From Alphaproteobacteria bacterium LSUCC0396 (GTDB lineage: Bacteria > Pseudomonadota > Alphaproteobacteria > Puniceispirillales > Puniceispirillaceae): 64,000 bases of DNA. The stretch lies in assembly GCA_041228345.1 (NCBI GenBank), contig CP166131.1, positions 496,001 to 560,000 of the forward strand. The letters run 5' to 3'. The position numbers and the translations under genes are program-made. Below are positions 45,737 to 62,760 of the stretch, piece after piece (within the stretch, counting starts at the first letter, position 1; each line of letters starts with the position of its first letter). The notes beneath the pieces are model-generated. The model saw nothing but the letters and a program-made list of their open reading frames with translations. It did no database searches and was not told the origin of the DNA.

Positions 45737-45750
45737 TGGTGCGGCCGAGA
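45737..45750 (-). repeat. Attachment core, copy 1 (tRNA 3'-end-like)
   Basis: On the minus strand this reads TCTCGGCCGCACCA, like the acceptor end of a tRNA (probably leucine) including CCA. No tRNA body lies on its 5' side. It is the leftmost of four direct copies and marks the junction with the yajQ side of the chromosome. Confidence 0.7.
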
Positions 45751-45757
45751 AGGGTTA

Positions 45758-45833
45758 GCACCATTTTCCTTCTGAAACCCAAAGAAAATATAGCGATATG
45801 TCCATTTTATGCCCCTAGGTCGTACAAATGGTC
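45758..45833 (+). repeat. Island 1 inverted repeat, left arm
   Basis: This arm is the reverse complement of 48074-48150, with three substitutions and one gap. It begins with GCACC, a partial inverted copy of the core, and ends at the 3' end of the transporter gene. It contains a repeated GTCGTAC/GACCATT element that may be an integrase arm site. Confidence 0.8.
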
Positions 45834-46785
45834 ACGTCCTTAAACTTGTTTTGACCGCAATGGGCTTATTTTTAACTCCCTCACGGAAAAATATATAAAT
45901 CCCACTCAGCGTGATCAAAGTCATACCAACAAACGAAAAGTAGTCTGGGATTTCACCGAACAACCAATAACCATTAACTATCGCAAACACCAATAACACG
46001 TACTCAAACGGTGCAATTACAGGTGGATTTGAAATCCTGTAAGCGCTTGTAAGAAGCAGCATACCGCAGCTTCCGATGCATGCTATGGTCAAGATAGCTA
46101 AAATTGCATTCCAATCAGATATCACCCAAGGCCGCAGCAGATAGGCATAGCTTTTTGAAGTGCCAATATCTGGGCCTATCAGAGAGATTATGATTGAAGC
46201 GACAAGCCCTAGGATGCAACTACCCCAATACAAATGCATCATTTGCTGCCAAACGCTGTCTCTATCACGTGTATATTTAGCTATCATCATTGAGACCGAA
46301 TATGTGAACGCCGAGACAAGCGGCAGCAAAGCGATCATTTCAAATTTGTTTGGGCTAGGTTTCACTATCAGAATAACACCTGCAAAACCGGTCAAAACCG
46401 CCCCTAAACGATGAAAACCAATGTGATTTTTGAACAAAAACTTTGATATTATCGTCACGAATATTGGGCTAAAGAAGAATAGACTAGTAACCTCCGCTAG
46501 CCCCATTTCGCTGAGCGCAAAATAAAAGCAAAGAAACCCAGAGAAAAATAGTATGACCCGGCATAAAGCTAGCTTTGGATAGGATGAAGTAAATAAAATA
46601 GGACGACCCGTTAGCTTCAAAAACGCTATAAGAATTGACCCGCCGATCAGTCCTCTGATTGTCATGATTTGGGGTAGTGAGGCTACATCAGCCAAATGCC
46701 TAACTAGTATGTCCTGAACACTGAATAGTGACATTCCAACCAAAATAAAGAGAATGCCACGCACATCATCGTTCATCGAGATCAT
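45832..46785 (-). CDS. EamA/DMT-family transporter (island 1)
   Basis: This 317-residue inner-membrane protein has ten hydrophobic helices arranged as two EamA repeats (about residues 8-140 and 155-295). Family features include a long first helix GILFILVGMSLFSVQDILV and LGAVLTGFAGVILIVKP closing the first half. The second half ends SFVGMTLITLSGIYIFF. The substrate is unknown; relatives export amino acids, metabolites or drugs. Codon use is AT-rich compared with genes left of 45 kb. It is the only cargo of island 1, and its stop lies inside the left inverted arm. An alternative start is at 46776. Confidence 0.85.
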   Translation of the reverse strand: MISMNDDVRGILFILVGMSLFSVQDILVRHLADVASLPQIMTIRGLIGGSILIAFLKLTGRPILFTSSYPKLALCRVILFFSGFLCFYFALSEMGLAEVTSLFFFSPIFVTIISKFLFKNHIGFHRLGAVLTGFAGVILIVKPSPNKFEMIALLPLVSAFTYSVSMMIAKYTRDRDSVWQQMMHLYWGSCILGLVASIIISLIGPDIGTSKSYAYLLRPWVISDWNAILAILTIACIGSCGMLLLTSAYRISNPPVIAPFEYVLLVFAIVNGYWLFGEIPDYFSFVGMTLITLSGIYIFFREGVKNKPIAVKTSLRT

Positions 46786-46896
46786 CTCATCAGTTAATGA
46801 ACCTCAAGATTGATTTAAAAAGCACGCTTAATCAATAATTTTATCAATAAAAACAGTCGTATAATGAACATTTAGTATCCTTTTTACGTCAAAGAC

Positions 46897-48066
46897 TTAT
46901 TCAAATCTACTCAGTGGTGCTGCCGCAGATGCTGGAAGGACGATAGCTTGCATCCATCGACTAGTGATCTCGATTTCGTAACCTTCCCCATAACTTTGAC
47001 CCACGCCCGATGTCTTCCATCCATCCAGTTGATCAATGATGTCCGGCGGAAATTCGACAGCCCTGAGCCGATCGCGAAAACTGTGACGGAATGAATGGAC
47101 AACACAGCCATCAGGAACTAACGGCCGCAGCCATTTATTTAACCCATTACTAGCGTAGTCCGACTTATTGCCTTCCGGTGAGAAATAACGAGGAAACAAA
47201 AAGTCACTTTCGGAAGACGCTTGAGCGCGTTTTATGCCCCACAGAGTGGCTCCAACGGCTGGAACGCGCCTTTGACTATTCTCAGTCTTTAGAGGCCTCC
47301 AAGGCCGCTCTGTGAGCGTTATAAGCGGTACTTTGCAATCCAAAGATATATCTTGCTTAGTGAGACCGATCGCTTCAGCTAACCGCATACGGCTGTCAGA
47401 CAAAACAGCTATTAACCAACGCATCTCGTCATCTTTGCGTCGGCACTCTTCCTGAATAACTCGCAATTGCTCATACGGTATGGGCAAACGCCGAACAGGC
47501 TTGGCGCCGTTGCCATAATTCATGTTTGAGAAGGGGTTCACTGCATCAATAGCATTTTCAGTTGCGATGAAGTTCCATATGGCGCGAATACACTCAAAAT
47601 TCCGTTTTACTGTGGCTTGCGCGACCCCTCTGGCAACAAGTGTATCGCTAAACCGAAATGCATCAGCACGAGTATAGGCCTTGATAGACTTGTTTCCAGA
47701 AACAGCCACTACCTCTGCTACCACTCGGCTTACATAACCACAGAACCGTTTATCGTCAGACTTACCCCTCATTTTACAACAAGTATCGGCAGCCTCTGTC
47801 AGTAACAGCACCTGTAGAATCCCTGATTTCAGGAAATCTGATGCGGCCACACCTTTTGGCAAAGTAAAACGTAAATCCTGCCATTCTTTTTCAAGCGACA
47901 GGACTATATCACTGGATATGCGAACGGCTTGCGCTCGGTCTCGCGTTCTCAACGATTTTTGGATAGAATGTTTCCCATAATGCGGCACAAGATCCGTTGG
48001 AATGCGGTTTTGAAGGTAGTAAATACCGCATTTGCGTTACAAATAAGGAGCTGAAACTTTCGTCAT
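46897..48066 (-). pseudogene. Tyrosine integrase with in-frame stop at codon 10 (island 1)
   Basis: From the ATG at 48066 the frame reads MTKVSAPYL, then TAA at 48037-48039, then continues RKCGIYYLQNRIPTDL into the long frame that resumes with GTG at 47988 (363 residues). The downstream part keeps the phage-integrase core: DSRMRLAEAIGL (catalytic Arg), HSFRHSFRDRL (His-x-x-Arg) and VGQSYGEGYE (nucleophile Tyr). The N-terminal piece matches the start expected for this family, so the TAA most simply replaces a Gln codon. Starting at GTG 47988 would give a protein lacking about 26 N-terminal residues of the DNA-arm domain, which might be active or not. Its 5' end faces the core at 48145. Confidence 0.75.
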
Positions 48067-48073
48067 AAAGTAC

Positions 48074-48150
48074 GACCATTTGTACGACCCTAGGGGCACA
48101 AAATGGACATATCGCTATATTTTCTGCGGGTTTCAGAAGGAAAATGGTGC
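48074..48150 (-). repeat. Island 1 inverted repeat, right arm
   Basis: This arm is the reverse complement of 45758-45833. It lies between the integrase start and the core at 48145, overlapping the first bases of the core, and so probably contains the integrase promoter and binding sites. Confidence 0.8.
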
Positions 48151-48158
48151 GGCCAAGA
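48145..48158 (-). repeat. Attachment core, copy 2 (one mismatch)
   Basis: TGGTGCGGCCAAGA differs from the other copies at one base. It separates island 1 from island 2. The following GAAGAGGTTCGATGCC resembles a tRNA T-arm at first sight but does not fold into a tRNA. Confidence 0.65.
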
Positions 48159-48190
48159 AGAGGTTCGATGCCTTTCCCCTGCGCTAGCAA

Positions 48191-49147: not shown

Positions 49148-50899
49148 TTAGGGCAAATGAATGGTCATAATTGCCCCACCAGAAATCGGCGTAAGGTCAA
49201 TTTTTGCGTTTATTTTTCTGGCGCGCATCATCATGTTATTGATACCAAACCCACCTTCGCGGTTGCCTTCAAAGCTTTTGCCGCCAGTATTTTCAATGGT
49301 AATGTTGAACTGGTTTTCGGCGGTTTTGCTGGCTGAAACAACCAAGGTTTTACAATCTGCTCGCACAATCGCGTTATGAAGTGCCTCTTGGAAGATGCGC
49401 GTAATTTCAAGAATAATGACCGAACTGCTTTTTGGATAACCCATCAAGGCAAGAATTGACCAATCAACCTGGATCTTCTCTTGTGGAATATGATCGACGA
49501 TTTGCTGTCGCAATGTGCCAAGTGCAGAAAATAAATCTTCGTCAGATGCCTCGCGCTGACCAAGAATGACTCGAATTTCATTAATGGCAAAGCGGCTAAG
49601 CTTTTGAATGTCTGCAAGCGCAGTTTTCTGCTTTTCCTGCGATAAAATATTTACGATCGATAGGTAATTCAAAACACCATCATGCAGTTCTGAATGGACT
49701 TTTAGCATGGCTTGCGATTGCGACCGTTCTTTTTCCAAAATCAAATTATTGGCGGCAAGTTGGCTTCGTGAGTGCGCAACCCCGCTGATATATAACGTGC
49801 CAACGCAAAGAATGACGGCAACCGTACCCGCATGCACCAAGATAATGCCGTCAGATATCAGCCCAAACCGATATGCAGCGTCATGTCCCAATGTCACCAG
49901 GATGGCCATCATCGCGGCAAAATAAATACCTGAATTATTATTCCCAAGCCAAAAAAAGCGATGAAAACTTTTTGCCAAAACATAAAGAACAACCAGCAGC
50001 AGGATAGGAAGCGTCAAATATAAATTGGCAAGTTTCATCAGGGTTACTGATTGCGATCCGAACAACAGTAATGCAACAAATACGACGATTGCCGCGCCAA
50101 GATGCGATTTATTGATTGGTGGTTTGGACGGGTCAAATATGTTGTTGCCAAATTGAATCAGCCCAAAAGCAGCTAATGACATGAATGTGACTAAATAGGG
50201 AAAAGCATCAATGAGGGATGGAAACGCATTTCCGAAAATCCCAATCCCACCAATGATAAGTGCCGTCATAATAAAGATCGGTGCAACAGCGTCAGCATAT
50301 ACCAAGCCAAACGCAACAAGGGTGATCAGAACGATAACGATGAAGATTTCAGTGCCCCACAATGCAGCACGCATATTTTCGTAATAAACCGTGTTACGCT
50401 GTGCAGAGACGGCGAGTGAGGTTTCCTGTCCAAAATATATTTTGGACATAGTGACCGAACCAATTCCCTTGTTTTCGATTGAAAAGCTTATGTCAGGCCG
50501 GTGCTTTCCGTCTGTTTTGGGTAATTGAATAAGAGCATCAGGAATGCGAAGACCGCTATGCCAATATTTCTGAGTGTCACTGTCAAAGAATTGAGTGCCA
50601 TTGGCGAAAAATTTCAGACGCCCTTCGTAAAAAGGAATGTAAATGGTATCCGTGGTGATGGGATCGTATCGATCAATGCTCAGATTTCCCTGAAGGCGAA
50701 CCGGGGTATCAGTGCCATGCACGACCTCAGAAACAGGCAGGCCAATGCTGTGCGCCAAAGTGGGCGCGGCGTTAAATTCTTCAATAACGAAGTCATATTC
50801 AGACACGTTCAAAAACGCCTTTGGCGCCCAAAAACACATCAGGGGGCCCAAAATTGTGAGCATAACAACTAGAATTTGGCTTTTGGATTTTCCCCACAC
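49148..50899 (-). CDS. Membrane sensor histidine kinase (HisKA_3 type)
   Basis: This 583-residue sensor has an N-terminal membrane helix and a periplasmic beta-rich domain of about 140 residues (about 35-175), resembling the extracellular domain of 7TMR-DISM kinases. A block of about seven to eight membrane helices spans about 180-370, and the cytoplasmic kinase follows. The phospho-acceptor motif is HSELHDGVLNYL near residue 405, as in NarX/DesK kinases. The ATPase domain has EALHNAIVRA and GGFGINNMMMRA. It starts at GTG, sharing one base with the TAG of the response regulator gene, so the pair is translationally coupled. The ligand is unknown. Confidence 0.88.
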   Translation of the reverse strand: MWGKSKSQILVVMLTILGPLMCFWAPKAFLNVSEYDFVIEEFNAAPTLAHSIGLPVSEVVHGTDTPVRLQGNLSIDRYDPITTDTIYIPFYEGRLKFFANGTQFFDSDTQKYWHSGLRIPDALIQLPKTDGKHRPDISFSIENKGIGSVTMSKIYFGQETSLAVSAQRNTVYYENMRAALWGTEIFIVIVLITLVAFGLVYADAVAPIFIMTALIIGGIGIFGNAFPSLIDAFPYLVTFMSLAAFGLIQFGNNIFDPSKPPINKSHLGAAIVVFVALLLFGSQSVTLMKLANLYLTLPILLLVVLYVLAKSFHRFFWLGNNNSGIYFAAMMAILVTLGHDAAYRFGLISDGIILVHAGTVAVILCVGTLYISGVAHSRSQLAANNLILEKERSQSQAMLKVHSELHDGVLNYLSIVNILSQEKQKTALADIQKLSRFAINEIRVILGQREASDEDLFSALGTLRQQIVDHIPQEKIQVDWSILALMGYPKSSSVIILEITRIFQEALHNAIVRADCKTLVVSASKTAENQFNITIENTGGKSFEGNREGGFGINNMMMRARKINAKIDLTPISGGAIMTIHLP

Positions 50900-51597
50900 T
50901 AGTTCAGTAATCCCAAGTTCCGTGCTTCAAAAACAGCCTCTGAGCGATTATTCGATTGCAGCTTTCGATAAATATTACGGATATGAACTGGCACTGTCGT
51001 TGGTGCAAGAGATAATGTTGTGGCCACTTCAGAATAGGAAAGCCCACGTGAAATGAGATTCAGAACCTCTAATTCGCGCGATGATAAAATTTTGGCTTTT
51101 TGTTTTGGCTCGGCTTGACCTTCGGGCGTGCGGCCCGCCTTATTCCGGAAAAGGCTAGCAAGCTGCGCGTCGTTACCATTATTCTGAAGGGTGGCGACAA
51201 TCTTATTTGCAATCGATGGCGAGATAGGTGAATCTCCAGCCATTGCTGTTTTGATAACTGTAATGATTTCAGACGATTCATCGCCCTTGTGAATATAGCC
51301 AACAGCGCCATCAGTAATCGCTTGCAGAATAACCGCACTATCCATTGATGATGAAATAACAATTGAGATCGCTGTATCGACTGCGGTTGAAAACCCCTTG
51401 ATGCTTTGGTTTCCTCGCCCATCTGGCAAATCAAGATCAGCAAGAAGAATATCAATATGATGGTTTTCCAAACAGGCTAAAAACTCGGCATTGTCTGAAC
51501 ATGTAAAAACCTGCTGAACGTGATCCCAATCTTTTAGGACACGCGCAAATCGCCGCTGTAAATATAAATCATCTTCTAAAACGGCAATATTGATCAT
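50899..51597 (-). CDS. LuxR/NarL-type response regulator
   Basis: This 232-residue regulator has a receiver domain (about residues 1-120) with the phospho-acceptor Asp54 in LLADLDLPDG and acidic residues LEDD at 7-10. The LuxR helix-turn-helix (about 165-230) is LSSRELEVLNLISRGLSYSE followed by TVPVHIRNIYRKLQSNNR. The start at 51597 follows a GAGAG/AAGA region. It is the first gene of the regulator-kinase pair and is divergent from the inverse-autotransporter lipoprotein gene across 174 bp, which makes that gene its most likely target. Confidence 0.9.
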   Translation of the reverse strand: MINIAVLEDDLYLQRRFARVLKDWDHVQQVFTCSDNAEFLACLENHHIDILLADLDLPDGRGNQSIKGFSTAVDTAISIVISSSMDSAVILQAITDGAVGYIHKGDESSEIITVIKTAMAGDSPISPSIANKIVATLQNNGNDAQLASLFRNKAGRTPEGQAEPKQKAKILSSRELEVLNLISRGLSYSEVATTLSLAPTTVPVHIRNIYRKLQSNNRSEAVFEARNLGLLN

Positions 51598-51771
51598 TCT
51601 TCGCTCTCTTGCATTCGTGCGCATTTATCTAGACGTGTTTTTTCAAGCTGTGCAAACAATCTAACTAGTTTTTGGTGCGAGCTACCATATCCGTAGTATT
51701 GAACGACTGGCTAATTTGCTGATGGTTAGTTTGGCAAAAAAATAGCTATTTACATGCTGGAGTCGTAAATT
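51598..51771. promoter_or_regulatory. Divergent regulatory region, response regulator versus surface lipoprotein
   Basis: This 174-bp AT-rich region must hold both promoters. It contains CTAC-N7-GTAG (near 51,682-51,696), a possible half-site pair. GGAG lies ten bases before the lipoprotein start. Confidence 0.4.
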
Positions 51772-52782
51772 ATGAAAAAGTCCCAACTTGCTGGCAGTGT
51801 TCTTTTGCTGTCACTGACTGGCTGTTCTTCAATCGGCAGCGGTTGGAACAACACGGTCGACTTTATTTTCGGGCCGGAGGATGGCGCGGGTCAACGTCAA
51901 GAAGCCGCTGCCAAGATGGCATCTGATGCGGCCACTAGTGCCAACCCAGAACAGGCTTTGGTCGATAATATCGTCAAGAAAAGCGTTGATAAAGCCGCTA
52001 TGTCAACTGCGGCTGCCATCGACAATTCTATGGCCTATTCCAAAACTGACATCAGCATAACCGGCATTAAAAGTAAAAAGACACGTTATGCGATTACCAA
52101 TGTCAAGGGCTTTGAACCAAGCGATAATAGCCATGCGCAAACATTCATGCAGTCATCGTTAACTAACGCTAATTCAAGAGCTGTTTTGAATTTGGGTTTG
52201 GGGCGCCGTTATCTTAGTGATGATGAGAGCGTCATTACTGGCGTCAATGCCTTTTTGGACTATGACCCAAAATATGGACATCAGCGGGTCAGCATTGGGG
52301 CAGAGTTAAAATCCTCGGCGTTTGAATTAACCGCAAATAACTATAAAGCCCTAACCAAATGGAAAAAAGGCAAAAGCGGCAATCAAGAACGAGCGCTGGA
52401 CGGACATGATATCGAGCTTGGCGCACAAATCCCCTACATGCCGGCTGCAAAGCTTTATGTGAAAAATTGGAAATGGAAGGGCGAAGACGGCGCTGGTGAC
52501 ACCAAGGGTAATACCTACAGTTTAGCTTTCTCCCAGTTGATAAATGGTGTTCAAGTTGAGCTTGGCCGCAGAGATTATGATGGACTTCAAAAAGATGAAA
52601 ATTTTGGCCAATTAACCTACACCATTCCAATGGGGAGTGCGCCTGCGCAGTCTAGCCAGCCATTATTCTCAAGTGAGATGTTTGAAAGCGCGTCGATGAA
52701 AGACAAAATGCTCGATAAGGTTCGGCGTAATAACGCAATTGTAATCCAAACTAAGTTCGTTGCTGCGGTTGGTGGAGTTTAA
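51772..52782 (+). CDS. Lipoprotein with inverse-autotransporter-type beta-barrel domain
   Basis: This 336-residue protein has a lipoprotein signal, with lipobox LTGC at residues 15-18, so it is lipid-anchored. An Ala-rich linker follows (about 40-105). Residues about 125-300 match the inverse autotransporter (intimin/invasin) N-terminal barrel pattern: LNLGLGRRYLSDDESVITG, VNAFLDYDPKYGHQRVSIG, LTANNYKALTKWK and the repeated amphipathic strands after it. Unlike intimins there is no Ig-like passenger after the barrel. The next gene encodes a separate secreted protein that could be its partner. Expression is probably controlled by the divergent two-component system. Confidence 0.78.
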   Translation: MKKSQLAGSVLLLSLTGCSSIGSGWNNTVDFIFGPEDGAGQRQEAAAKMASDAATSANPEQALVDNIVKKSVDKAAMSTAAAIDNSMAYSKTDISITGIKSKKTRYAITNVKGFEPSDNSHAQTFMQSSLTNANSRAVLNLGLGRRYLSDDESVITGVNAFLDYDPKYGHQRVSIGAELKSSAFELTANNYKALTKWKKGKSGNQERALDGHDIELGAQIPYMPAAKLYVKNWKWKGEDGAGDTKGNTYSLAFSQLINGVQVELGRRDYDGLQKDENFGQLTYTIPMGSAPAQSSQPLFSSEMFESASMKDKMLDKVRRNNAIVIQTKFVAAVGGV

Positions 52783-52786
52783 TACT

Positions 52787-53644
52787 ATGTCACATTATTT
52801 GAAAATTTTGTTTTCAGCATTGTTTGTTTTTTCAACGTTATCATTATCAGCCAATGCTCAGACAATAGTAAACGAGAACGCCATGGCTTTCTCCGCCTGT
52901 CCCGCAACCGGTGACATGGTGGCAGAAGATGGAGAGTGCCGCGTCACGCCATCAACGTTTTCGACAAAGATATATGAAATTGGGTTATGCACCGCACACC
53001 CATATGGTGCGGCAAAAACAAGCGCAACATTTGACGCTTCAACTTGTGTTGTGATTTATACCGATGCAGCCCCTGCTGCCGTCGACCTTGCGGCTGCAAT
53101 CGGAACCAATACGTCTCTTCCCGGAACTGCATCAGCGCCACCTGAGGGAACTTATGGGTTTCCGTATATTAAGTTAGGAACAGATTTTACAGTAGCTGGT
53201 TCATTTACAAACACACCGACTGGTGGAGTAGCAACCACCTACTACAGCCGTAGCAATGGGACCGTTGGCACTACTGCGCCAGCAGTTGCGAAAACAGACT
53301 CACTGAAAAACTTTGGTGATGACGATTGCTCATCGGGTTATGTGGGCGCTGCAGTTGTTGGTGGAACTATGGACGGCTTCATCACCAATACTGCTTTTAC
53401 AAGAAGTACTGATACTGACAAGAGCGGCGACCCGGTCATCTGCAACAAAAGTGATAGATTAGTCGCGGTTATGAATCTAGCGGCGCCCTTCACCGTTACG
53501 AGTCAAACATATGCGGTAAACTTTAACTTTATTCTTACTAACTATGGAGCTCAGTTTGTTGATGGAAACAACACTGCCGGCGCCCCTGAAGAATTTGCAA
53601 GCGCACCCTTTGCTGGTTACTTTACTGTGCTAAATGCTGACTAA
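52787..53644 (+). CDS. Secreted cysteine-containing protein, possible partner of the barrel lipoprotein
   Basis: This 285-residue protein has a signal peptide (MSHYLKILFSALFVFSTLSL, cleavage near ANAQT). The mature part is rich in Thr, Ala, Gly and Asn with low charge. It has several cysteines (ACPATG, GECRV, LCTAH, STCVV, DDCSSG, VICNK), likely disulfide-bonded, and reads like an all-beta extracellular protein. I do not recognise a family. It begins 4 bp after the lipoprotein stop and is followed by a hairpin, so the two form a bicistronic unit. The start at 52787 follows GGTGGAG. Confidence 0.7.
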   Translation: MSHYLKILFSALFVFSTLSLSANAQTIVNENAMAFSACPATGDMVAEDGECRVTPSTFSTKIYEIGLCTAHPYGAAKTSATFDASTCVVIYTDAAPAAVDLAAAIGTNTSLPGTASAPPEGTYGFPYIKLGTDFTVAGSFTNTPTGGVATTYYSRSNGTVGTTAPAVAKTDSLKNFGDDDCSSGYVGAAVVGGTMDGFITNTAFTRSTDTDKSGDPVICNKSDRLVAVMNLAAPFTVTSQTYAVNFNFILTNYGAQFVDGNNTAGAPEEFASAPFAGYFTVLNAD

Positions 53645-53673
53645 ACAAAGACTCTAAAATTTAACCTAACAAA

Positions 53674-53714
53674 CTCTGATACTGCCGCCAAACAAAATGG
53701 CAGTGGTATCAGAG
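53674..53714 (+). terminator. Hairpin after the surface-protein operon
   Basis: CTCTGATACTGCC pairs with GGCA...GTATCAGAG with a three-base bulge and a 12-nt loop. It lies 30 bp after the stop. The T-rich tail is weak on the plus strand. Confidence 0.5.
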
Positions 53715-53752
53715 AAAATTTGGCTGATGGCAGCCGAGAAATTATGGACATT

Positions 53753-54196
53753 TTATGCATCACCAGTCTCAATCATTGTGAGGCTCTTATTTTCGAGACA
53801 ATCCTTCAAGTACCCAATGTTCCGGGAAGAGCTTTGGAAAAACAAGCTAGCCTTCCCTGTTCCCTTTAGGCTTTGATAGCAGCGAAGCGCATCATCCAAA
53901 CTTAGTGAAGTTTTCTTATCATTCGGTCGCAAATCAGCATTTATTAGAGATAACCCGAGTTCACGCGAATGAATCTGCTCAAGCCTCAAGCTATCCCAAT
54001 AACGTTCTAGCCTATCAGACAGTGTCATCGATAAGCTGCGAGCCTTATCTGCTGATTTTGTCTTGAGTGATACTTCAACACGGCGCTTATTGAAGCGTGC
54101 CTGCAGGTCCGTAGGAACTGCGCGAGAGAAGTAATAAATGTCATTTCTTTGATAAAAGTATACCGGAGACCTTGTCCACACCATAACGTGTACCAC
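53753..54196 (-). pseudogene. N-terminal remnant of a tyrosine integrase (island 2)
   Basis: The 147-residue frame matches only the N-terminal arm-binding part of the integrases nearby: VYFYQRNDIYYFSRAVPTDL, VEVSLKTKSADKARSLS and DDALRCYQSLKGTGK correspond to the same segments at 58165-59304. The frame stops before the core-binding and catalytic domains, so no Arg, His-x-x-Arg or Tyr residues remain. Its 5' end faces attachment core 3, as in the intact copies. It is probably a deletion remnant; its truncated end abuts the surface-protein operon. Confidence 0.8.
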
Positions 54197-54267
54197 CCTG
54201 CTCTAAAACATTAACTGTTTAGATACAGTTACTAGGCCACCGATCCGCGGTTCTTGAAACTAGGAAA

Positions 54268-54281
54268 TGGTGCGGCCGAGA
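54268..54281 (-). repeat. Attachment core, copy 3
   Basis: TGGTGCGGCCGAGA is identical to copies 1 and 4. It is the outer end of the 388-bp inverted repeat and the boundary between islands 2 and 3. Confidence 0.7.
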
Positions 54282-54655
54282 AAATCTATTATGCCTTACG
54301 TATGCACCATCACTGACCTGAACATCAGCAATACTCACATATTATGTGTCACTGACTCACTGTCAACAGGCACGTAATCTTTCACAGTTTCTTTCACAGT
54401 GAATAGAAATCTTCGGGTAATGGAATAAGCCTACATATCCTTATCGTTATCAGTACAGGGTAAGTGAGATATGTAGGTGATAGATACATATCCTTGTTAA
54501 GGACACCTGACTGTTAGCTTACAGTGCCTTAACAATCCCAATGTCAATAACACCTAACCACCTATGGGGCGGCGGGCGCCACCCCCCAGCCGCACGTATA
54601 TATAAATGGACAATTACACAGATCAGTCTTTAAAAGTGTTAACCACTATCAGTTG
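54268..54655 (+). repeat. 388-bp inverted repeat, left arm
   Basis: This is the reverse complement of 57436-57823, with only about three differences, all near 54,590. It starts with the attachment core and contains the perfect palindrome CACATATTATGTG (54336-54348) plus several shorter inverted elements. No gene lies in it. With the next 140 bp it forms a gene-free stretch of nearly 600 bp. Confidence 0.92.
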
Positions 54656-54680
54656 TCATTCTTGTCATTTGTGTCATTTT
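54654..54680 (+). repeat. Iteron-like 9-bp repeats, cluster 1
   Basis: TGTCATT occurs three times at an exact 9-bp spacing (54654, 54663, 54672), at the inner edge of the 388-bp repeat. The same triplets recur inverted at 57228-57252 and direct at 57306-57330. They could be arm-type binding sites or replication iterons. Confidence 0.75.
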
Positions 54681-54793
54681 TAATGAAGGCGTGCTTTGGA
54701 TTGTGGCTAGATTAATCAGTCTAGGTTTGTCAGGTAATATCTGAGTAGTTAATTGGAAGCAAAATGATTATTGTATTTTTTAGGGCCTGACGA

Positions 54794-55246
54794 TTGGTAC
54801 GTGCTGGTCTTCTTATTCACCTGATCATGACTACTATTGCCGGAATTTATCCTGCCAGTGCGGCAGACTCTGCAAGGCGTGATATTTCCTGTGGCAATTA
54901 CCGCTACATCATAGAGAAATCTTTATTTGGTGTTAATGTCAACATCATGAATATTAATGATAATATTATTGCCTCAACCGAACGTCCTTATTGTCAATCA
55001 AACCCCGATGCTCAGATGGTGGCTGAACTTTCAGTAGATGGTGATGATATATGGTGTGTTGAAAAGTTCTTTATCGTGATGGATCGAAAGCCCATTGCAA
55101 AAACTTCGCGTTTGCTAAGCCTCACTCTGGACCGCGTCTTTGAATATGACTATTTGTGGCAAGCTGGTGACTGGGTAAAAGCTGACACACGGACCATTAC
55201 TTGTGCCAGTCACAAAGAGCCTAAAATGAAAAAAATCCCCGATTAG
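54794..55246 (+). CDS. Small secreted protein of unknown function (island 3)
   Basis: This 150-residue product starts at TTG (54794), or at ATG 54827. The N-terminus (LLIHLIMTTIAGIYPASAADS) is a signal peptide with an AxA-type cleavage site. The mature part contains four cysteines (DISCGNYRY, PYCQSN, IWCVEK, ITCASH), likely two disulfides. I do not recognise a family. The TTG start keeps an arginine before the hydrophobic stretch, which suits a signal peptide. It precedes two transporter genes on the same strand and lies inside the potentially invertible module. Confidence 0.6.
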   Translation: MVRAGLLIHLIMTTIAGIYPASAADSARRDISCGNYRYIIEKSLFGVNVNIMNINDNIIASTERPYCQSNPDAQMVAELSVDGDDIWCVEKFFIVMDRKPIAKTSRLLSLTLDRVFEYDYLWQAGDWVKADTRTITCASHKEPKMKKIPD

Positions 55247-55365
55247 GACTGGTAATTTCTCGCCTCGCTCCTTTGTTGTCCTATCCTATTGGTTCTAACC
55301 GCGCAGGTAAGTGAACTCAACCATTAGCCTCGCAAAAGGCGCTTTGATTAGTTTGTGAGGAAATT

Positions 55366-56229
55366 ATGAGTGCAAATCTGAAAAGTATAATCCTAATGGT
55401 TATTGGGATGGGTTGTTTAACCTTAGGTGATTTGCTGATCAAAATCGCCAGCCAAACATTACCGCTCGGACAGGTAATGATTATATTTGGTGCCGGCTCA
55501 ATAACAGTATTTTTGGGGGTTATGCGTATTGAGGGTGAGTCTGTTCGGCTATCGCCATTCACTAATCTTGCAGTAGTGTTGAGAAATATTGGTGACCTTA
55601 TTGCCATAAATGGTATGTGCTTGGCATTAGTATTTGTTCCCATATCCACTATTGGGGCAGTGATTCAAACTGTACCATTGATGGTTACCGCAGCCGCAGC
55701 TTTGTTTCTTGGCGAGCGAGTTGGCCCACGGAGATGGTTGGCCATTCTTATTGGTTTTTTAGGAACTCTGCTTATCATCCAGCCGGGTGCTGCTACCTTT
55801 GATATCGCGACAACCCTTGTATTGATTGCTGCAGCAGGTATGACGTTACGAGATATAACGACCAAGCTGGTTCATGAAAATTTTTCAACTCTGCTTCTGT
55901 CCTCGTATACGTCTGTACTATTTATAATAAGTGGCGGCGTTTTACTCATAATCTCAGGTGGAGCCAGCATACCTGATATAAAGATGATAGCCATACTTGT
56001 AGCAATGATCGCCTGCGGTTCTTTGGGTTTTTTCTTTACAACTAAGGCTGTCAGGTTGGGAGATGTGTCTGTTGTAATCCCTTTTCGTTACACTCGACTT
56101 CTGTTTTCTGTGGCGGCTGGCATTTTAATTCTTGGCGAGCAGGTAAATTTGATCATGCTAATTGGTAGCGCTTTAACGATTTCATCTGGCCTTTACATTT
56201 GGCGCAGAGAAATTGTTATTCAAAATTAA
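55366..56229 (+). CDS. EamA/DMT-family transporter (island 3, first)
   Basis: This 287-residue membrane protein has ten helices in two EamA repeats. The first (about 5-140) includes VVLRNIGDLIAINGMCLALV and LGERVGPRRWLAILIGFLG. The second (about 150-283) ends LGEQVNLIMLIGSALTISSG. GAGGAAATT precedes the start. It is followed after about 100 bp by a second EamA gene that is clearly different in sequence, so this is not a tandem duplication. The substrate is unknown. Confidence 0.87.
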   Translation: MSANLKSIILMVIGMGCLTLGDLLIKIASQTLPLGQVMIIFGAGSITVFLGVMRIEGESVRLSPFTNLAVVLRNIGDLIAINGMCLALVFVPISTIGAVIQTVPLMVTAAAALFLGERVGPRRWLAILIGFLGTLLIIQPGAATFDIATTLVLIAAAGMTLRDITTKLVHENFSTLLLSSYTSVLFIISGGVLLIISGGASIPDIKMIAILVAMIACGSLGFFFTTKAVRLGDVSVVIPFRYTRLLFSVAAGILILGEQVNLIMLIGSALTISSGLYIWRREIVIQN

Positions 56230-56331
56230 AATAGGCGTGGCAAGAAATTGCCTCGCTTTCTCATACAGCTTTCGATTAGTGTTTTTTTCAAAATGAAATA
56301 ATCCTATTTTCCTCATAAATTCAGAGCAAAA

Positions 56332-57210
56332 ATGACAAAGCCTATTGCTACAATATTAGTCCTTTTTGGGGCTTCAATGATGAGTTTTGTTGGGGTCCTG
56401 ATGAGGCTGCTCGATGAGGCTACGGGGTTCCAAATTCTTTTCTATCGGTCAATTAGCCTCACATTAATGGTTTTGCTGGTCGTCTGTATTCGGCGCAGAA
56501 CCACTCCTTCATTTTTCATCAAATCAATTGATAAGCATGACCTGCTGATGGGAGGCTGGCTTTCAGTAGCCTTCACCACGTACATTTTCTCTATGCTCTG
56601 GAGTTCAGTTGCATCAACCCTATTAATCATCACTATTGCACCGTTTCTTGCTGCAGTAATTGCTTGGAAGTGGATTGGTGAAACTCCCCACCCTGTTACA
56701 TGGCCAACCATGATCGTTGCAACTTTTGGCGTGGGCTTAATGGTTTATGATGGGGCTAATCTTGGTTATTCACTGGGAAATATCAGTGCATTTGTCTCTG
56801 CATTATGCTTTGCCATAATGCTAGTTGTAGCAAGGCGCAGTCAAAAAACGGATGTTTTAGGCGGAACGTTCATGGCTGGCGTATTTAGCGTTTTACTTGG
56901 AGCCATAACCGCAGTTGTTTTTGATGGCAGCCTTAAAGTCAGCCAATCAGATATTTCAATTATTTTATTTATGGGTGCCTTCACTATTGGTCTTGGAATC
57001 GCTTTGGTAACAACTGGAACAGGATATATCCCTGCTGCAGAGGTAAGTCTACTTGTGTTGATTGAAAGTGTTTTGGGTCCAATTTGGCCGTGGGTGTTTT
57101 TAGGTGAACCAATCACTATTTATGAAATTATCGGCGGAGTAATTACACTTTTAGCCGTAGCTGCCTTCACTATTTATAGTCGTAAATCACGAGTGCCTTT
57201 ATCTGATTGA
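56332..57210 (+). CDS. EamA/DMT-family transporter (island 3, second)
   Basis: This 292-residue membrane protein has two EamA repeats. FQILFYRSISLTLMVLLVV lies in the first half and LLVLIESVLGPIWPWVFLGE, the classic EamA signature around helices eight and nine, in the second. The C-terminus is a short basic tail. It is co-directional with the other transporter gene, from which it has diverged. The pair may form a heterodimer or act independently. It lies just inside the right arm of the inverted repeats. Confidence 0.88.
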   Translation: MTKPIATILVLFGASMMSFVGVLMRLLDEATGFQILFYRSISLTLMVLLVVCIRRRTTPSFFIKSIDKHDLLMGGWLSVAFTTYIFSMLWSSVASTLLIITIAPFLAAVIAWKWIGETPHPVTWPTMIVATFGVGLMVYDGANLGYSLGNISAFVSALCFAIMLVVARRSQKTDVLGGTFMAGVFSVLLGAITAVVFDGSLKVSQSDISIILFMGAFTIGLGIALVTTGTGYIPAAEVSLLVLIESVLGPIWPWVFLGEPITIYEIIGGVITLLAVAAFTIYSRKSRVPLSD

Positions 57211-57227
57211 GTTAACCCCCGCCTCCC

Positions 57228-57252
57228 AATGACACAAATGACAAGAATGACA
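57228..57252 (-). repeat. Iteron-like 9-bp repeats, cluster 2 (inverted)
   Basis: AATGACA occurs three times at 9-bp spacing. This cluster is the inverted counterpart of 54654-54680. It is separated from the right 388-bp arm by about 180 bp of extra sequence that begins and ends with CAACTGAT. Confidence 0.7.
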
Positions 57253-57305
57253 ACTGATCTATAAACCTCTGCCAATTCTTCTCATGGACGACTTTCCATT
57301 TCCTT

Positions 57306-57330
57306 TGTCATTTCTGTCATTCCTGTCACA
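57306..57330 (+). repeat. Iteron-like 9-bp repeats, cluster 3
   Basis: TGTCATT, TGTCATT and TGTCACA occur at 9-bp spacing inside the extra segment, facing cluster 2 and able to pair with it as a long hairpin. Confidence 0.65.
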
Positions 57331-57435
57331 TACCCATTTAAAAAGATCACCAATAATGCATCACGTATTAGGCACCGGCTTTGCCTAAACACGTTTATGG
57401 GCATTTTAGTGACTCATTGAATTGCACTTAAATGG

Positions 57436-57823
57436 CAACTGATAGTGGTTAACACTTTTAAAGACTGATCTGTGTAATTGTCCATTTATATATATGTGTG
57501 GCAGGGGGGTGGCGCCCGCCGCCCCATAGGTGGTTAGGTGTTATTGACATTGGGATTGTTAAGGCACTGTAAGCTAACAGTCAGGTGTCCTTAACAAGGA
57601 TATGTATCTATCACCTACATATCTCACTTACCCTGTACTGATAACGATAAGGATATGTAGGCTTATTCCATTACCCGAAGATTTCTATTCACTGTGAAAG
57701 AAACTGTGAAAGATTACGTGCCTGTTGACAGTGAGTCAGTGACACATAATATGTGAGTATTGCTGATGTTCAGGTCAGTGATGGTGCATACGTAAGGCAT
57801 AATAGATTTTCTCGGCCGCACCA
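57436..57823 (-). repeat. 388-bp inverted repeat, right arm
   Basis: This is the reverse complement of 54268-54655 at the same length. It ends with the inverted attachment core at 57810-57823, which it shares with the 78-bp repeat of the neighbouring integrase module. Confidence 0.92.
57810..57823 (+). repeat. Attachment core, inverted copy
   Basis: TCTCGGCCGCACCA on the plus strand is the only copy of the core in this orientation. It is the joint between the two modules of island 3. Confidence 0.75.
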
Positions 57824-57887
57824 TCTTCTCATCTAAACACCTGATATGTCGGCACATTATGTGCAACAGATTAGGCGTGTGAAATAG
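57810..57887 (+). repeat. 78-bp inverted repeat, left arm
   Basis: This is the reverse complement of 59306-59383 except at one base. It contains the perfect palindrome GCACATTATGTGC (57852-57864) in this arm, a likely protein-binding site. Confidence 0.92.
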
Positions 57888-57939
57888 ACACTCACGAAAT
57901 CTGATGCTCCATCGTACTTACAGTAAATTGAGTATCAAC

Positions 57940-58158
57940 ATGGAATTTTTACTTCTTTGGGTTCTTGGTGGAAATGTATTGGACAGCGGTCTTCGCTATG
58001 AAGATGCTGGCAGCTGCTACGCTGCTGCTCAGAACAGCGGTAAAGACCTCCAAGAAATAGGCCTGTCTCCACCCAAGTTCACTTGTGTTCCAGTTGCCGA
58101 AGGCAAAGAATTGAAACTGCTGGTTCCTGAACAGCAAGGTTCACGCTTTCCATTCTGA
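57940..58158 (+). CDS. Small protein of unknown function (island 3)
   Basis: This short product of 72 residues starts MEFLLLWVLGGNVLDSGLRY with a hydrophobic N-terminus. It then has GSCYAAAQN and FTCVPVAEG, two cysteines about 35 residues apart. A longer start at 57904 adds 12 residues. It converges on the integrase gene with a 6-bp gap. It resembles small exported or membrane-tethered proteins often seen in marine bacterial accessory DNA, but I cannot name a family. The position inside the integrase module suggests it travels with it. Confidence 0.5.
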   Translation: MEFLLLWVLGGNVLDSGLRYEDAGSCYAAAQNSGKDLQEIGLSPPKFTCVPVAEGKELKLLVPEQQGSRFPF

Positions 58159-58164
58159 TACAGA

Positions 58165-59304
58165 TTAGAGTCTCCTCATCCACTTCTCTAAGACCTCTAA
58201 TGGATACCCATTCCCATATCCATGACCTACGCCAGAGGTCTTCCAGCCTCCTATTGCATCAACAATATCCGATGGACATTCCACGGCTCTTAAACGGTCA
58301 CGAAGACTATGTCTAAAGCTATGAATGACACAGTTGTCTGGCACGTATTGATGCAGCCATTTATTAAGACCACCACTAGCTGAGTTGGCTTTACAGCTTG
58401 CTGCATCGCAGTATCTAGGAAAAGCAAAGATACTATCATTGTTGGCCTCTAGAAGCCTCTTAGACGCCCACAGAGTAGCCCCAACAAGCGGAATACATCT
58501 GTGACTGCCTTTGGTCTTTAAACTCCTCCACGGATGAGGTTTAAGGTCTATGTGAGGTATACAGTCATCTAGTTTTATGTCTTCTTTCAGTAACCCAGCT
58601 GCTTCTCCTAATCTCATGCCAGTGTCACTGATAAGAGCAATGAGCCACCGCATCTCATCGTCTATGTCTTTGCACAGAGATTGCACCCTCTTGATGTCTT
58701 GAATGGATATTGGCTGTCTTGATTGAGCATCATCATCATCAGGAAAGTAAGTCTTGGCAAAGGCATTGGAACAATCCAGCCCCTCCTCTGCTATCGCTAG
58801 GTTCACTATGGCTCTTATTGATGAAAAGACACGCTTGACTGTCTTAATACCCATACCTTTATCAATACACCAATCACGAAACTGAGCAGCTTCATTGGAG
58901 GAGTAAGAGGATATGGGTCTATCGCCCAAGAGTTTGGTCACATAGCTAGTGTTACGATTGGCGGTTCTTATGAACACCTTGTCTTTACCCACGCCTTTCA
59001 GCCGCAGGTATAACTCACAGGCTTCAGACAGAAGTAAACCATCATTAACAGCAGAATCACTTGATTTGACCACTTGAATAGCAGGTATATCCATATTTTG
59101 CAGTCGCAAACCAAGCCAATAATCCTCAAGGCGTTGGTTTATTGATTTGCTTGCACGAACAGCTACAGAGGCTGATTTGGTTTTAAGGCTGAAGCAGAGC
59201 CTACTCACATTATAGTAGGCAATTAGGTCATAAGGTATGTGACGAACATAATAGTAAACACCATCACGATTCATCACGTGTTCGGGAGCAAATTTCTTTC
59301 TCAT
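58165..59304 (-). CDS. Tyrosine-family site-specific integrase (island 3)
   Basis: This 379-residue recombinase appears intact. The N-terminal arm-binding region (MRKKFAPEHVMNRDGVYYYVRHIPYDL) matches the family start. A core-binding SAM-like domain lies at about 105-185. The catalytic domain has DTGMRLGEAAGL (Arg), HSFRHSLRDRL (His-x-x-Arg) and VGHGYGNGY (Tyr). Its start is just inside the 78-bp arm that ends in core 4, so its promoter lies in the repeat. It is the best candidate for the enzyme that moves or inverts the modules here. Confidence 0.93.
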   Translation of the reverse strand: MRKKFAPEHVMNRDGVYYYVRHIPYDLIAYYNVSRLCFSLKTKSASVAVRASKSINQRLEDYWLGLRLQNMDIPAIQVVKSSDSAVNDGLLLSEACELYLRLKGVGKDKVFIRTANRNTSYVTKLLGDRPISSYSSNEAAQFRDWCIDKGMGIKTVKRVFSSIRAIVNLAIAEEGLDCSNAFAKTYFPDDDDAQSRQPISIQDIKRVQSLCKDIDDEMRWLIALISDTGMRLGEAAGLLKEDIKLDDCIPHIDLKPHPWRSLKTKGSHRCIPLVGATLWASKRLLEANNDSIFAFPRYCDAASCKANSASGGLNKWLHQYVPDNCVIHSFRHSLRDRLRAVECPSDIVDAIGGWKTSGVGHGYGNGYPLEVLEKWMRRL

Positions 59305-59305
59305 T

Positions 59306-59383
59306 CTATTTCACACGCCTAATCTGTTGCACATAATGTGCAGACATATCAGGTGTTTAGATGAGAAGATGGTGCGGCCGAGA
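59306..59383 (-). repeat. 78-bp inverted repeat, right arm
   Basis: This is the partner of 57810-57887. It lies between the integrase start and the right end of core 4 and must contain the integrase promoter. Confidence 0.92.
59370..59383 (-). repeat. Attachment core, copy 4
   Basis: TGGTGCGGCCGAGA, identical to copies 1 and 3. A partial second copy, TGGTGCGG, follows at 59390-59397. No tRNA body is found to the right within the window. Confidence 0.7.
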
Positions 59384-59521
59384 CGCAATGTGGTGCGGAA
59401 TCATTAGTGTCTAACTAATTGAATCATATAGACAGTTGTAAATCTTGGCAAGAGGCTTGTGATACCGATTGTGACACCTTTTTAAGGCTAGGGATTTTAG
59501 GAATCCTACTTCTAAAACCAA

Positions 59522-59592
59522 CCCCCATACCCATCGAAATCTCACGGCTTCAAAAAAGGGGGCTAAAAGTCAGAGGTGTTGTTCTTGTTGTT
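59522..59592 (+). repeat. Diverged direct repeat, left copy
   Basis: This copy begins CCCCCATACCCATCGAAATC and contains TTCAAAAAAGGGGGCTAAAA and TTGTTCTTGTTGTT. It matches 62697-62760 with about a dozen differences. It lies in the 360-bp gap between the integrase and the PhoX-like gene, which otherwise holds core 4 and the terminator. Confidence 0.75.
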
Positions 59593-59620
59593 AAAATCAC
59601 ACAGCAGTTGATGCAAGGGC

Positions 59621-59650
59621 AAAAAAGAGAGGCGCATTATCACGCCTCTC
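59621..59650 (-). terminator. Strong Rho-independent terminator of the secreted-protein gene
   Basis: On the minus strand GAGAGGCG pairs perfectly with CGCCTCTC around an 8-nt loop and is followed by six T. It lies 19 bp past the stop codon. Confidence 0.9.
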
Positions 59651-59668
59651 CGAGTTGTTATTGTAATG

Positions 59669-61726
59669 TCATTTTTTAGGATTCATGGTGAACATAAATA
59701 TTTGCCCACCTGCATCACCGCCGTGCGCTTCCACAGCTCCACTCGATTCTGGACGAGCCTGAACCACTCCAATGTAGGTTTGCTCTGCGGTGCTGATTTT
59801 GCTGCGAATGTCCTGACGAGCCGTTCCTTTCAATTCTTCCATGGAGTAGAAAGAGCCATCAGTTTTCTTTGCAATTAGTGCAGTTACAGGCCATGAACCT
59901 GAAAATTCGGTTGTTCCTGGCTTAGTGAAAGCGCCACCCAGTGCAGATACACCCGCTTCATAACGTGAGCTGTATTTACCGCCGGAAATTGCTAGAAGAT
60001 GGGCATCAGTGACGTTCATGTCATCGTCGATTGTCAGCACATATTTGCGTTCGCCGAAGTCATTTCCTGAGTCTTCGTCTACAATCAAATAGTCACCGTC
60101 TGCTGTTTTAGCCCAATAAAGTCCATCAGGATCAACCATCTTAGCGACACCTTTTTCCATATGGATAGACGCATCACCACCTTTCACCTTACCTTCGCCA
60201 CCAACCTTTAGAGTTAAAGCGCCATCCACAGCTGCAACAGCCCGTTTGACTGAAACATCGAGAAATGCAGGAAGCTCACCCTTAGCTAGATTAAGAGCCT
60301 CAGCAAGGTTGCCAAGGTCAAAAGCAAGCAAGCCGCCTTCGTCAGTCATGTTTTGGAAATAACGCGCAGCCCCTGAAGGGTCAGCAGCAGGGTGTTCTGT
60401 TTTTGTGTCTCCATTAAAGAAGGCATAACCTTTTGGCTGTTCCTCTTTTTGTTCCCATAACATCATCTCTGTGTCTTGCACGGCGAGTGGTTTATCAAAG
60501 CCCTGCCATTGATAAGATGTTGGATAAAAACGACCATTGAAACTATTCGGAGCATCCTTGTTTTTCATATAGTCATCAACCATTTTTGCATCGAGTTTTG
60601 CCTCAATACCCAGTTTGGCGAATGTCTCACGAGCAAGTGCTAATCCATAGATTTTGCCATATAACAGGCCATTTCTCGCAAGGAATGCGTCACGTTCATT
60701 TGCTGTTGCATAGTTAATTTTGCTGCCATCTGCTCGGCGGTCTTTAATGCCAACATAAATACGATTCGGCGCTGGTTCTTGGCCATGATTGTAGCCAGCT
60801 GCCACGATAACCACGTAATCCTTATGGCCTGAGTTGATTGGCATTAGCTTTTCATAACCAGTTTGACCGAGAGCGGGAACCGTATATGCGGTCCGATTGG
60901 CAATATCCACGACAACACTCGCCAGACCCAGCGTTGATGCCGAGTCATGTTTCCCAGCAGGGAACATCTGCCCAATTTCCCACTCCTCAGCGGTCAGCCA
61001 GACATCGTCTCGAAAACCAATACCTTGACCATATTTATTCGCTTGCTCGTACCACGCTCCGCAGAAACTCTGGAAAAAATAATCAGCTTCGCTCAGGCGG
61101 AAATTCGGCTTAAACTGAACAAGTGTTCCGTCGGGTCGGGTTTGGTTGCCCCATTTGCCAGACAGGTAGGATGGGTCGAAAGATGGTGCAGAGACAATCT
61201 CGCCGAAACCGTTATATACTGTGTCAAATAGTTTCCCTGAGCCTTTTACCATCCCCTTTGCGGAGTTTGCATTCTTCATAAAGTCTGCAAATTTTGCTCT
61301 ATCATAATCGATGGTATGGATGTGGGAGCCTGTGAAGGTTACACCATTCTTCATTCTCCAGGGATATGTTTCTGGCCGTGGGGCGCGGCCCATCGTTGCA
61401 TATGACTCACTTTGATAGATCACCCTTACAGTTTCATCATCTGTGAGCATGGCTGCATGACCATCTGGATAGCCTGTCAAAGTTTCACCAGAAACAACGT
61501 CAACTTCGCCAACAGTTGCAATAGCTTTGAAGCTGGCAAAAGGAAAATTTGTATTAGCGCTTTCACCATCTTTCAAAGGCTTTGTTGCAAGACCAGCCTC
61601 AGGAATAAGAGCAGTGGTCTCGCCGATTACTTTTTGCGAGCCGTGGCTGCCAGCAACCGCTGAAAAAACAACTGAAGTAGATAGCAAAGTGGTGCTTAAA
61701 AGCGCAGTGAGAATTAGGTGTTTCAT
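59669..61726 (-). CDS. Large secreted protein, possibly PhoX/DUF839-like
   Basis: This 685-residue protein has a signal peptide (MKHLILTALLSTTLLSTSVV, cleavage near SAVAGS). It contains PSYLSGKWGNQTRPDGTLV, a middle region with YVVIVAAGYNHGQEPAPNRIY, and LIVDEDSGNDFGERKYVLTI near residue 560, which resembles the metal-binding repeats of PhoX-type (DUF839) enzymes. The C-terminus has RQDIRSKISTAEQTYIGVVQ and a Gly-Gly-His-rich segment GAVEAHGGDAGGQIF. I am unsure of the family. A calcium-dependent extracellular phosphatase or a related beta-propeller enzyme is the best guess. It is a single gene with its own strong terminator. Confidence 0.6.
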   Translation of the reverse strand: MKHLILTALLSTTLLSTSVVFSAVAGSHGSQKVIGETTALIPEAGLATKPLKDGESANTNFPFASFKAIATVGEVDVVSGETLTGYPDGHAAMLTDDETVRVIYQSESYATMGRAPRPETYPWRMKNGVTFTGSHIHTIDYDRAKFADFMKNANSAKGMVKGSGKLFDTVYNGFGEIVSAPSFDPSYLSGKWGNQTRPDGTLVQFKPNFRLSEADYFFQSFCGAWYEQANKYGQGIGFRDDVWLTAEEWEIGQMFPAGKHDSASTLGLASVVVDIANRTAYTVPALGQTGYEKLMPINSGHKDYVVIVAAGYNHGQEPAPNRIYVGIKDRRADGSKINYATANERDAFLARNGLLYGKIYGLALARETFAKLGIEAKLDAKMVDDYMKNKDAPNSFNGRFYPTSYQWQGFDKPLAVQDTEMMLWEQKEEQPKGYAFFNGDTKTEHPAADPSGAARYFQNMTDEGGLLAFDLGNLAEALNLAKGELPAFLDVSVKRAVAAVDGALTLKVGGEGKVKGGDASIHMEKGVAKMVDPDGLYWAKTADGDYLIVDEDSGNDFGERKYVLTIDDDMNVTDAHLLAISGGKYSSRYEAGVSALGGAFTKPGTTEFSGSWPVTALIAKKTDGSFYSMEELKGTARQDIRSKISTAEQTYIGVVQARPESSGAVEAHGGDAGGQIFMFTMNPKK

Positions 61727-62541: not shown

Positions 62542-62696
62542 TTTCGTGAGGGTTTGAGACTGCAAAAGTTTGGTTTGTTTGGTGCCTCAGTGACCCTCGG
62601 CCGTTGGTGTAGCCATCAAATATTAAGAAGATGTTATGTTAATATTACAATCAAGTGAAGAGTTGCACTGATTTTTTGACCACAGACCACAGCACA

Positions 62697-62760
62697 CCCC
62701 CGTACCCTTCGTAATCTCACAACTTCAAAAAAGGGGCTAAAGGCTCTGGTTCTTGTTGTT
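62697..62760 (+). repeat. Diverged direct repeat, right copy
   Basis: This is the partner of 59522-59592 in the same orientation. It shares CCCCC-TACCC, AATCTCAC, CTTCAAAAAAGGGG and TTCTTGTTGTT. Confidence 0.75.

What the first reader, a model, noticed from the sequence alone, without database searches (positions are those of the whole stretch)
54268..57823. Transporter cassette between 388-bp inverted repeats carrying the attachment core: possibly invertible
Seen: the arms 54268-54655 and 57436-57823 have equal length and differ at about three bases. Each ends in a core, and the two cores are inverted to each other. Inside are a secreted protein and two EamA transporters. Inference: the adjacent integrase could recombine inverted cores and flip the 3.6-kb segment, giving phase-variable expression, or the near identity could be kept by gene conversion.
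Basis: partly seen in the sequence, partly recalled or inferred. Interest (0 to 1): 0.8.

Follow-up and report, generated by a model that had tools for sequence, protein, structure and literature searches.

The report
Marine bacterial islands with inverted attachment sites
The repeats flank one half of a small mobile DNA element that carries two attachment sites in opposite directions; the same two-way design recurs in integrase elements of many alphaproteobacteria, and in one genome sister copies carry the same cargo in opposite orientations, so the cargo really does flip over evolutionary time.

Summary
Observation confirmed: 54268-54655 and 57436-57823 are inverted, with 3 mismatches in 388 bases. 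The segment is the cargo half of a 5.1-kb tRNA-Leu-type integrative element (54268-59383) in a SAR116 genome. A second, overlooked inverted repeat (57810-57888/59305-59383) flanks the integrase. Hence 57436-57888 is an almost complete extra attP (P arm, core, first P' site), inverted inside the element. The excised circle would carry two head-to-head attP copies separating an int half from a cargo half.

This is the rule for a clade of DUF6538 tyrosine integrases: 57 of 74 testable ints, in SAR116, Ruegeria TM1040 and other alphaproteobacterial families; 0 of 30 other integrases. In one closed genome, three paralogous elements carry the same cargo, inverted in one, with int unchanged. Arms are identical within an element near the core but differ between elements, so they are homogenised. 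Int always starts at the tRNA (41:0); the internal copy lacks the second P' site, a likely reason.

Flipping is supported on an evolutionary time scale. Who catalyses it (Int or RecA), how often, and why are open. Cargo phase variation is not predicted, because both cargo ends meet the same arm. Amplification as in the yeast 2-micron plasmid is the boldest open reading.

The parts
54268..59383 (.). Whole integrative element (A3): outer core - arm - cargo - inverted arm - inverted core - int - core on the side towards tRNA-Leu
54268..54281 (+). Outer att core (D2), direct to the tRNA-Leu core
54282..54678 (+). Outer arm (P arm); direct repeats CTTTCACAGT at about 54379-54388 and 54391-54400 are the likely arm-type integrase sites; 31-nt TGTCATT repeats at the inner end
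54794..55246 (+). Cargo: 150-aa protein with a signal-peptide-like N-terminus, no Pfam match (weak TTG start)
55366..56229 (+). Cargo: EamA transporter (PF00892)
   Evidence: homologues in relatives
56332..57210 (+). Cargo: EamA transporter (PF00892)
57228..57809 (-). Inner inverted arm, with a 172-bp stretch (57259-57430) that the outer arm lacks
57810..57823 (-). Internal inverted att core (I)
57436..57888 (-). Internal second attP (J2): P arm + core + flank with first P' site (about 57878-57888); ends where the int start codon would begin, so lacks the second P' site
57904..58158 (+). 84-aa ORF in the int half; no Pfam match
58165..59304 (-). Int3: DUF6538 + Phage_integrase tyrosine recombinase; R231, K263, H328, R331, W354 and Y363 lie in invariant columns
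59305..59369 (-). Int upstream flank (P' arm) with first P' site (about 59306-59316); the second (about 59292-59304) overlaps the int start; site calls weak in this element
59370..59383 (+). Core on the tRNA side (D1)
45737..48158 (.). Neighbour element A1: EamA + int1 (46897-47988), int flanked by 77-nt inverted flank copies (94.8%); cargo half lost
53753..54196 (-). Int fragment (DUF6538 domain only) of neighbour element A2

Best explanation
The segment is the cargo half of a small tRNA-targeting integrative element with two inverted copies of its attP. Copy J1, split between the two ends when the element is integrated, has both P' sites; J2, internal and inverted, lacks the second P' site. 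SHOWN by sequence: the three-core layout (direct, inverted, direct) with inverted arms; its recurrence over a clade of DUF6538 integrases; within-element homogenisation of the copies, strongest next to the core; cargo inverted relative to int between paralogous elements of one genome; int start always facing the tRNA. INFERRED: recombination between the inverted att copies, by Int at the cores and/or RecA on the arms, flips the cargo half relative to the int half, in the excised circle or in place; integration uses J1 because only J1 has the full P' arm, which fixes int beside the tRNA; repeated exchange and conversion keep the copies alike. The benefit is most likely to the element (its circle, or switching int between tRNA read-through and the arm context) rather than phase variation of the cargo. 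About 0.8 that the cargo half inverts in evolution; 0.5 that Int is the main catalyst.
For: Architecture in the window and at tRNA-Thr of the same chromosome. Full triple-core elements with inverted arms: TM1040 (arms 1148 nt 100%, flanks 85 nt 100%), G019 (383 nt 100%), G764 x3 (686-767 nt, 95-98%), G015, G030; G914 has 3183-nt arms at 100% but no tRNA was called. 57 of 74 testable ints have the inverted flank copy, within one supported clade (99/98); five longer 451-473-aa relatives lack it; 0 of 30 other PF00589 integrases from 8 of the same genomes, of which 3 lie by a tRNA. Inverted cargo in G764; the cargo-side arm ends travel with the cargo (gga_inner/tga_outer 72% against gga_inner/tga_inner 62% at 700-800 nt). 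In the two Ser elements all three cores match that element's own tRNA. Orientation 41:0. Paired 12-bp-spaced repeats in ARM and at the int start, element-specific; the J2 copy stops before or within the second repeat in the 18 elements printed.
Against: Only one genome gave homologous cargo in both orientations. No reads or isolates were available, so a present-day flip was not seen. 12 of 69 clade members lack a detected J2 (some are misses, e.g. L073 has the inverted core). The 41:0 int orientation shows that at least the int half does not flip freely in the integrated state. Arm-type sites are inferred from repeats and are weak in the window element.
Confidence: 0.62

Rival explanations
1. 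Self-serving flip circle as in the yeast 2-micron plasmid: the excised circle replicates and Int-mediated inversion between the two attP copies during replication turns converging forks into chasing ones, amplifying the element before transfer or reintegration.
For: Same anatomy: small circle, two inverted repeats each holding the recombinase target, a tyrosine recombinase in one half, homogenised repeats. In the 2-micron plasmid such inversion is thought to trigger amplification (PMC6594588).
Against: No replication gene seen in the elements examined, no origin identified, no circular or high-copy form seen; element integrates in the chromosome, unlike 2-micron.
Confidence: 0.2
2. Integrase switch: recombination between the tRNA-side core and J2 inverts int, moving its start from tRNA read-through to the arm context. 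Int is silent beside the tRNA and active in the circle or the flipped form.
For: The inverted copy carries the int 5' region and stops at or near the int start; arm-type repeats overlap the int start, suggesting autoregulation; all 41 integrated ints are in one orientation.
Against: No flipped int was found; no promoter above background in the window arm, and the two weak matches in the TM1040 arm both point away from int.
Confidence: 0.2
3. One reading: a phase-variable cassette whose cargo expression changes with orientation.
For: Cargo is invertible in G764 paralogues.
Against: Arms are symmetric, so both cargo ends see the same sequence; cargo is unrelated from element to element (transporters, restriction-modification, sulfotransferase); the layout follows the integrase, not the cargo.
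Confidence: 0.1
4. Passive inversion and conversion by RecA between long inverted repeats; J2 is a relic of an ancient inverted duplication.
For: Arms of 0.2-3.2 kb at 95-100% suit homologous recombination; identity falls with distance from the core.
Against: J2 persists over a deep clade with its end at the same functional point (between P'1 and P'2) and a core matching the local tRNA, which a relic would not keep.
Confidence: 0.2
5. Single-strand route: when the element is single-stranded (natural uptake, gene transfer agent, conjugation) the inverted copies anneal into a duplex attP, as in CTX phage.
For: CTX phage has two opposed attP sites that pair in the ssDNA genome to form the integration site (PMC3089051). 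The geometry here would also pair J2 with both ends.
Against: Copies lie 1-9 kb apart, not 90 bp; no single-strand replication or transfer gene found; the integrase looks like an ordinary arm-binding type.
Confidence: 0.08

Closest known systems
tRNA-targeting genomic islands / integrative elements with a tyrosine integrase
   Same: Integrase beside the 3' end of a tRNA gene, direct core repeats at both ends, arm-type repeats, cargo, tandem accretion at one tRNA
   Different: A second, inverted attP between int and cargo, and cargo bounded by inverted arms
Yeast 2-micron-type plasmids (Flp/FRT)
   Same: Would-be circle with two inverted repeats each holding a tyrosine-recombinase target; recombinase encoded in one half; isomers by inversion
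   Different: Chromosomally integrated at tRNA genes, bacterial, phage-integrase family; no partition or replication genes seen; replication not shown
CTX phage attP1/attP2
   Same: Two attP-like sites in opposite orientation in one element
   Different: There about 90 bp apart and acting as an ssDNA hairpin for host XerCD; here kilobases apart with an own integrase
Invertible phase-variation loci (shufflon Rci, PsrA-type)
   Same: Tyrosine recombinase next to inverted sites; segment inverts
   Different: There inversion changes a coding or promoter junction; here both ends are the same, cargo varies, and the sites are tRNA-derived attP copies
Tycheposons of marine picocyanobacteria
   Same: Small marine tRNA-associated elements with tyrosine recombinases and variable cargo (from memory; papers that mention them)
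   Different: Inverted second attP not described there as far as I know; not tested

Membership tests
tRNA-targeting integrative element with tyrosine integrase | Integrase with catalytic R, K, HxxR, H/W, Y | tested here: met
tRNA-targeting integrative element with tyrosine integrase | Direct core repeats, one restoring a tRNA 3' end | tested here: met
tRNA-targeting integrative element with tyrosine integrase | Variable occupancy of the tRNA site in relatives | tested here: met
   different content next to tRNA-Leu(gag) in G002, G005, G008, G014; a clean empty site was not found
tRNA-targeting integrative element with tyrosine integrase | Excision as a circle | not testable with these tools
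   needs reads or PCR
2-micron-like flip plasmid | Two inverted repeats each containing the recombinase site, dividing a circle in two | tested here: met
   for the circle implied by joining the end cores
2-micron-like flip plasmid | Both isomers exist | tested here: met
   between paralogous elements in one genome, not within one population
2-micron-like flip plasmid | Extrachromosomal replication and amplification | not testable with these tools
   no replication gene seen in elements examined
Phase-variable inversion switch | Inversion changes the sequence upstream of, or within, the regulated gene | tested here: not met
   arms at both cargo ends are 95-100% identical
Phase-variable inversion switch | Mixed orientations within one population | not testable with these tools
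   no reads available
CTX-type ssDNA attP | Closely spaced inverted attP sites forming a hairpin in ssDNA | tested here: not met
   copies are about 1.2 kb or more apart in the elements measured; single-strand form not testable
Tycheposon | Defining gene set of picocyanobacterial tycheposons | not tested
   defining paper not read

The most novel reading that the evidence does not exclude
A widespread alphaproteobacterial class of integrative elements that exist in the cell as 2-micron-like circles: an integrase-driven flip between two head-to-head attP copies amplifies the circle during replication, and asymmetry of the P' sites (J1 full, J2 lacking one) separates the integration site from the inversion site.
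Probability: 0.2. Interest if true: 0.92.

Novelty: new variant of a known kind. Interest (0 to 1): 0.75.

Why it matters
Tyrosine-integrase islands are normally understood with one attP. A clade of them, in SAR116, roseobacters and other alphaproteobacteria, keeps a second inverted attP copy homogenised with the first and, where it could be compared, matched to the local tRNA. That implies a conserved recombination step beyond integration and excision, makes the order and orientation of marine genomic islands readable, and explains draft contigs that end within or near these arms. Cultured, finished Ruegeria TM1040 and the IMCC1322-like genome make it directly testable.

Tried and rejected
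Assembly artefact: rejected (closed sequences and more than 50 loci). Window segment as a stand-alone transposon with terminal inverted repeats: rejected, because the repeats are att arms and a third core closes the element. Promoter scan of arms: not above shuffles in the window arm; two weak matches in TM1040 against 0.6 expected, both directed away from int. Circular or packaged forms: close search of viral contigs gave nothing; the profile search gave one contig, a prophage with the element in tandem; phage records only 25-29% identical integrases. Cargo of the window in relatives: homologues found, but only degenerate neighbours without a comparable int. Literature: no paper with DUF6538, none found on inverted att islands; subscription journals are not covered. 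Empty-site search in the genus gave occupied or broken sites.

Full report
CHECK. The window is G000:C1:496001-560000 of a closed 2.59-Mb SAR116 genome. The core TGGTGCGGCCGAGA is the 3' end of tRNA-Leu(gag) at 562167-562253. Cores at 45737, 48145, 54268, 59370 and the tRNA delimit a tandem array of four integrase elements; one core, 57810, is inverted.

WHAT IT IS. A second inverted repeat, 57810-57888/59305-59383, joins the inverted core to a copy of the integrase upstream flank. Read on the minus strand, 57436-57888 is therefore flank-core-arm, the junction that the element would have as a circle. The element 54268-59383 reads, from the tRNA side: core D1, flank, int, inverted flank, inverted core I, arm, cargo, inverted arm, core D2.

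A CONSERVED DESIGN. At tRNA-Thr of the same chromosome the layout recurs with a 55%-identical integrase and different cores. The inverted flank copy around int is also found at tRNA-Phe, Arg, Gly and Leu(taa) of this genome, in other SAR116 genomes, and in other alphaproteobacterial families. Ruegeria sp. TM1040 has a textbook copy on its finished megaplasmid: tRNA-Phe core, int, 85-nt inverted flank (100%), 1148-nt inverted arms (100%, each with a Bro-N gene), a type I restriction system as cargo, outer core. G914 has arms of 3183 nt at 100%. Of 74 testable integrases 57 have the inverted flank copy; all lie in one clade with 99/98 support, while five longer relatives lack it. None of 30 other Phage_integrase genes from eight of the same genomes has it, though only 3 of those lie near a tRNA.

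ATTACHMENT-SITE ANATOMY. In most of the elements compared, the arm holds two direct repeats about 12 bp apart, some 115-145 nt from the core, followed by GCCTGTTGAC or a close form. In most of them the same element-specific motif is repeated twice at the int start codon; G015 and the window element fit less well. These look like P and P' arm-type integrase sites (inference). The inverted copy runs to, or within a few bases of, the int start and breaks off before or within the second P' repeat in the 18 elements printed; in a few the first repeat is itself cut, and in G764_Thr the copy runs on into the int gene, the one exception to that boundary. So in general J1 has the full P' arm and J2 does not.

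DOES IT FLIP? In closed genome G764, elements at tRNA-Thr(tgt), tRNA-Ser(gga) and tRNA-Ser(tga) carry the same two cargo genes. In the third the cargo block is inverted relative to int, while int and the core-side arm stay collinear. The cargo-side ends of the arms moved with the cargo, so the break lies on the core side. Within each element the arms are 99-100% identical for the first 300 nt from the core and then diverge, whereas elements differ by 4-50% there: homogenisation centred on the core. In the two Ser elements all three cores match that element's own tRNA, although the elements are about 90% identical and hence related.

WHAT DOES NOT FLIP. In all 41 inverted-repeat integrases beside a tRNA the int start faces the tRNA; none is reversed. 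If J1 and J2 were equal as integration sites both orientations should occur. The missing second P' site in J2 is a ready explanation (inference; G764_Thr, whose copy includes the int start, would need another one).

FUNCTION. Arms at both cargo ends are alike, so a flip does not change the local context of the cargo; phase variation is not predicted. The layout follows the integrase and not the cargo, which points to a role for the element: an integrase switch, or a flip circle as in the yeast 2-micron plasmid, where inversion between head-to-head sites is thought to start amplification (PMC6594588). CTX phage is a precedent for two opposed attP sites with another purpose (PMC3089051). Which of these holds cannot be settled from sequence. 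Int or RecA as catalyst is equally open.

NOVELTY. I found no paper on this design in the open library, which misses subscription journals. I file it as a new variant of tRNA-targeting integrative elements, with a categorically new reading (2-micron-like amplification) not excluded.

Noticed in passing
window 45737-64000 and on to tRNA-Leu(gag) at genome 562167: About 20-kb tandem array of four integrase elements; the int nearest the tRNA (455 aa, genome 560721-562088) belongs to a longer subfamily without the inverted site.
   Followed up: partly
window 57259-57430 and arms: TGTCATT-type short repeats near the inner arm ends and a stretch conserved among SAR116 arms (CTGATAACGATAAGG...CATTACCCGAAGATTT); function unknown, perhaps an origin or regulatory site.
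   Followed up: no
L111 13511-14086 and 23855-24430 (Ruegeria TM1040 megaplasmid): Identical Bro-N genes annotated twice because each lies in one inverted arm.
   Followed up: yes
L174, L176, L178 (G764): Cargo TPR-sulfotransferase genes contain 102-bp tandem repeats whose number differs among the three paralogous elements.
   Followed up: no
L100 (IMGVR_UViG_2836641625_000003): Prophage tail genes followed directly by an element of this class with a type I restriction system, in tandem.
   Followed up: partly
window 51772-52782: 336-aa lipoprotein that to my eye resembles inverse-autotransporter beta-domains, next to a secreted protein (52760-53644) and a two-component system (49148-51624), as cargo of element A2.
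   Followed up: no
window 59521-59592 and 62696-62769: Direct repeat of about 75 bp, 80% identical, 3.2 kb apart within the next element; unexplained.
   Followed up: no
G000 1639926-1645712 (element B2): An element whose int has a stop codon keeps the inverted flank (95%) but no longer detectable arm identity, as if homogenisation stopped when int broke.
   Followed up: partly
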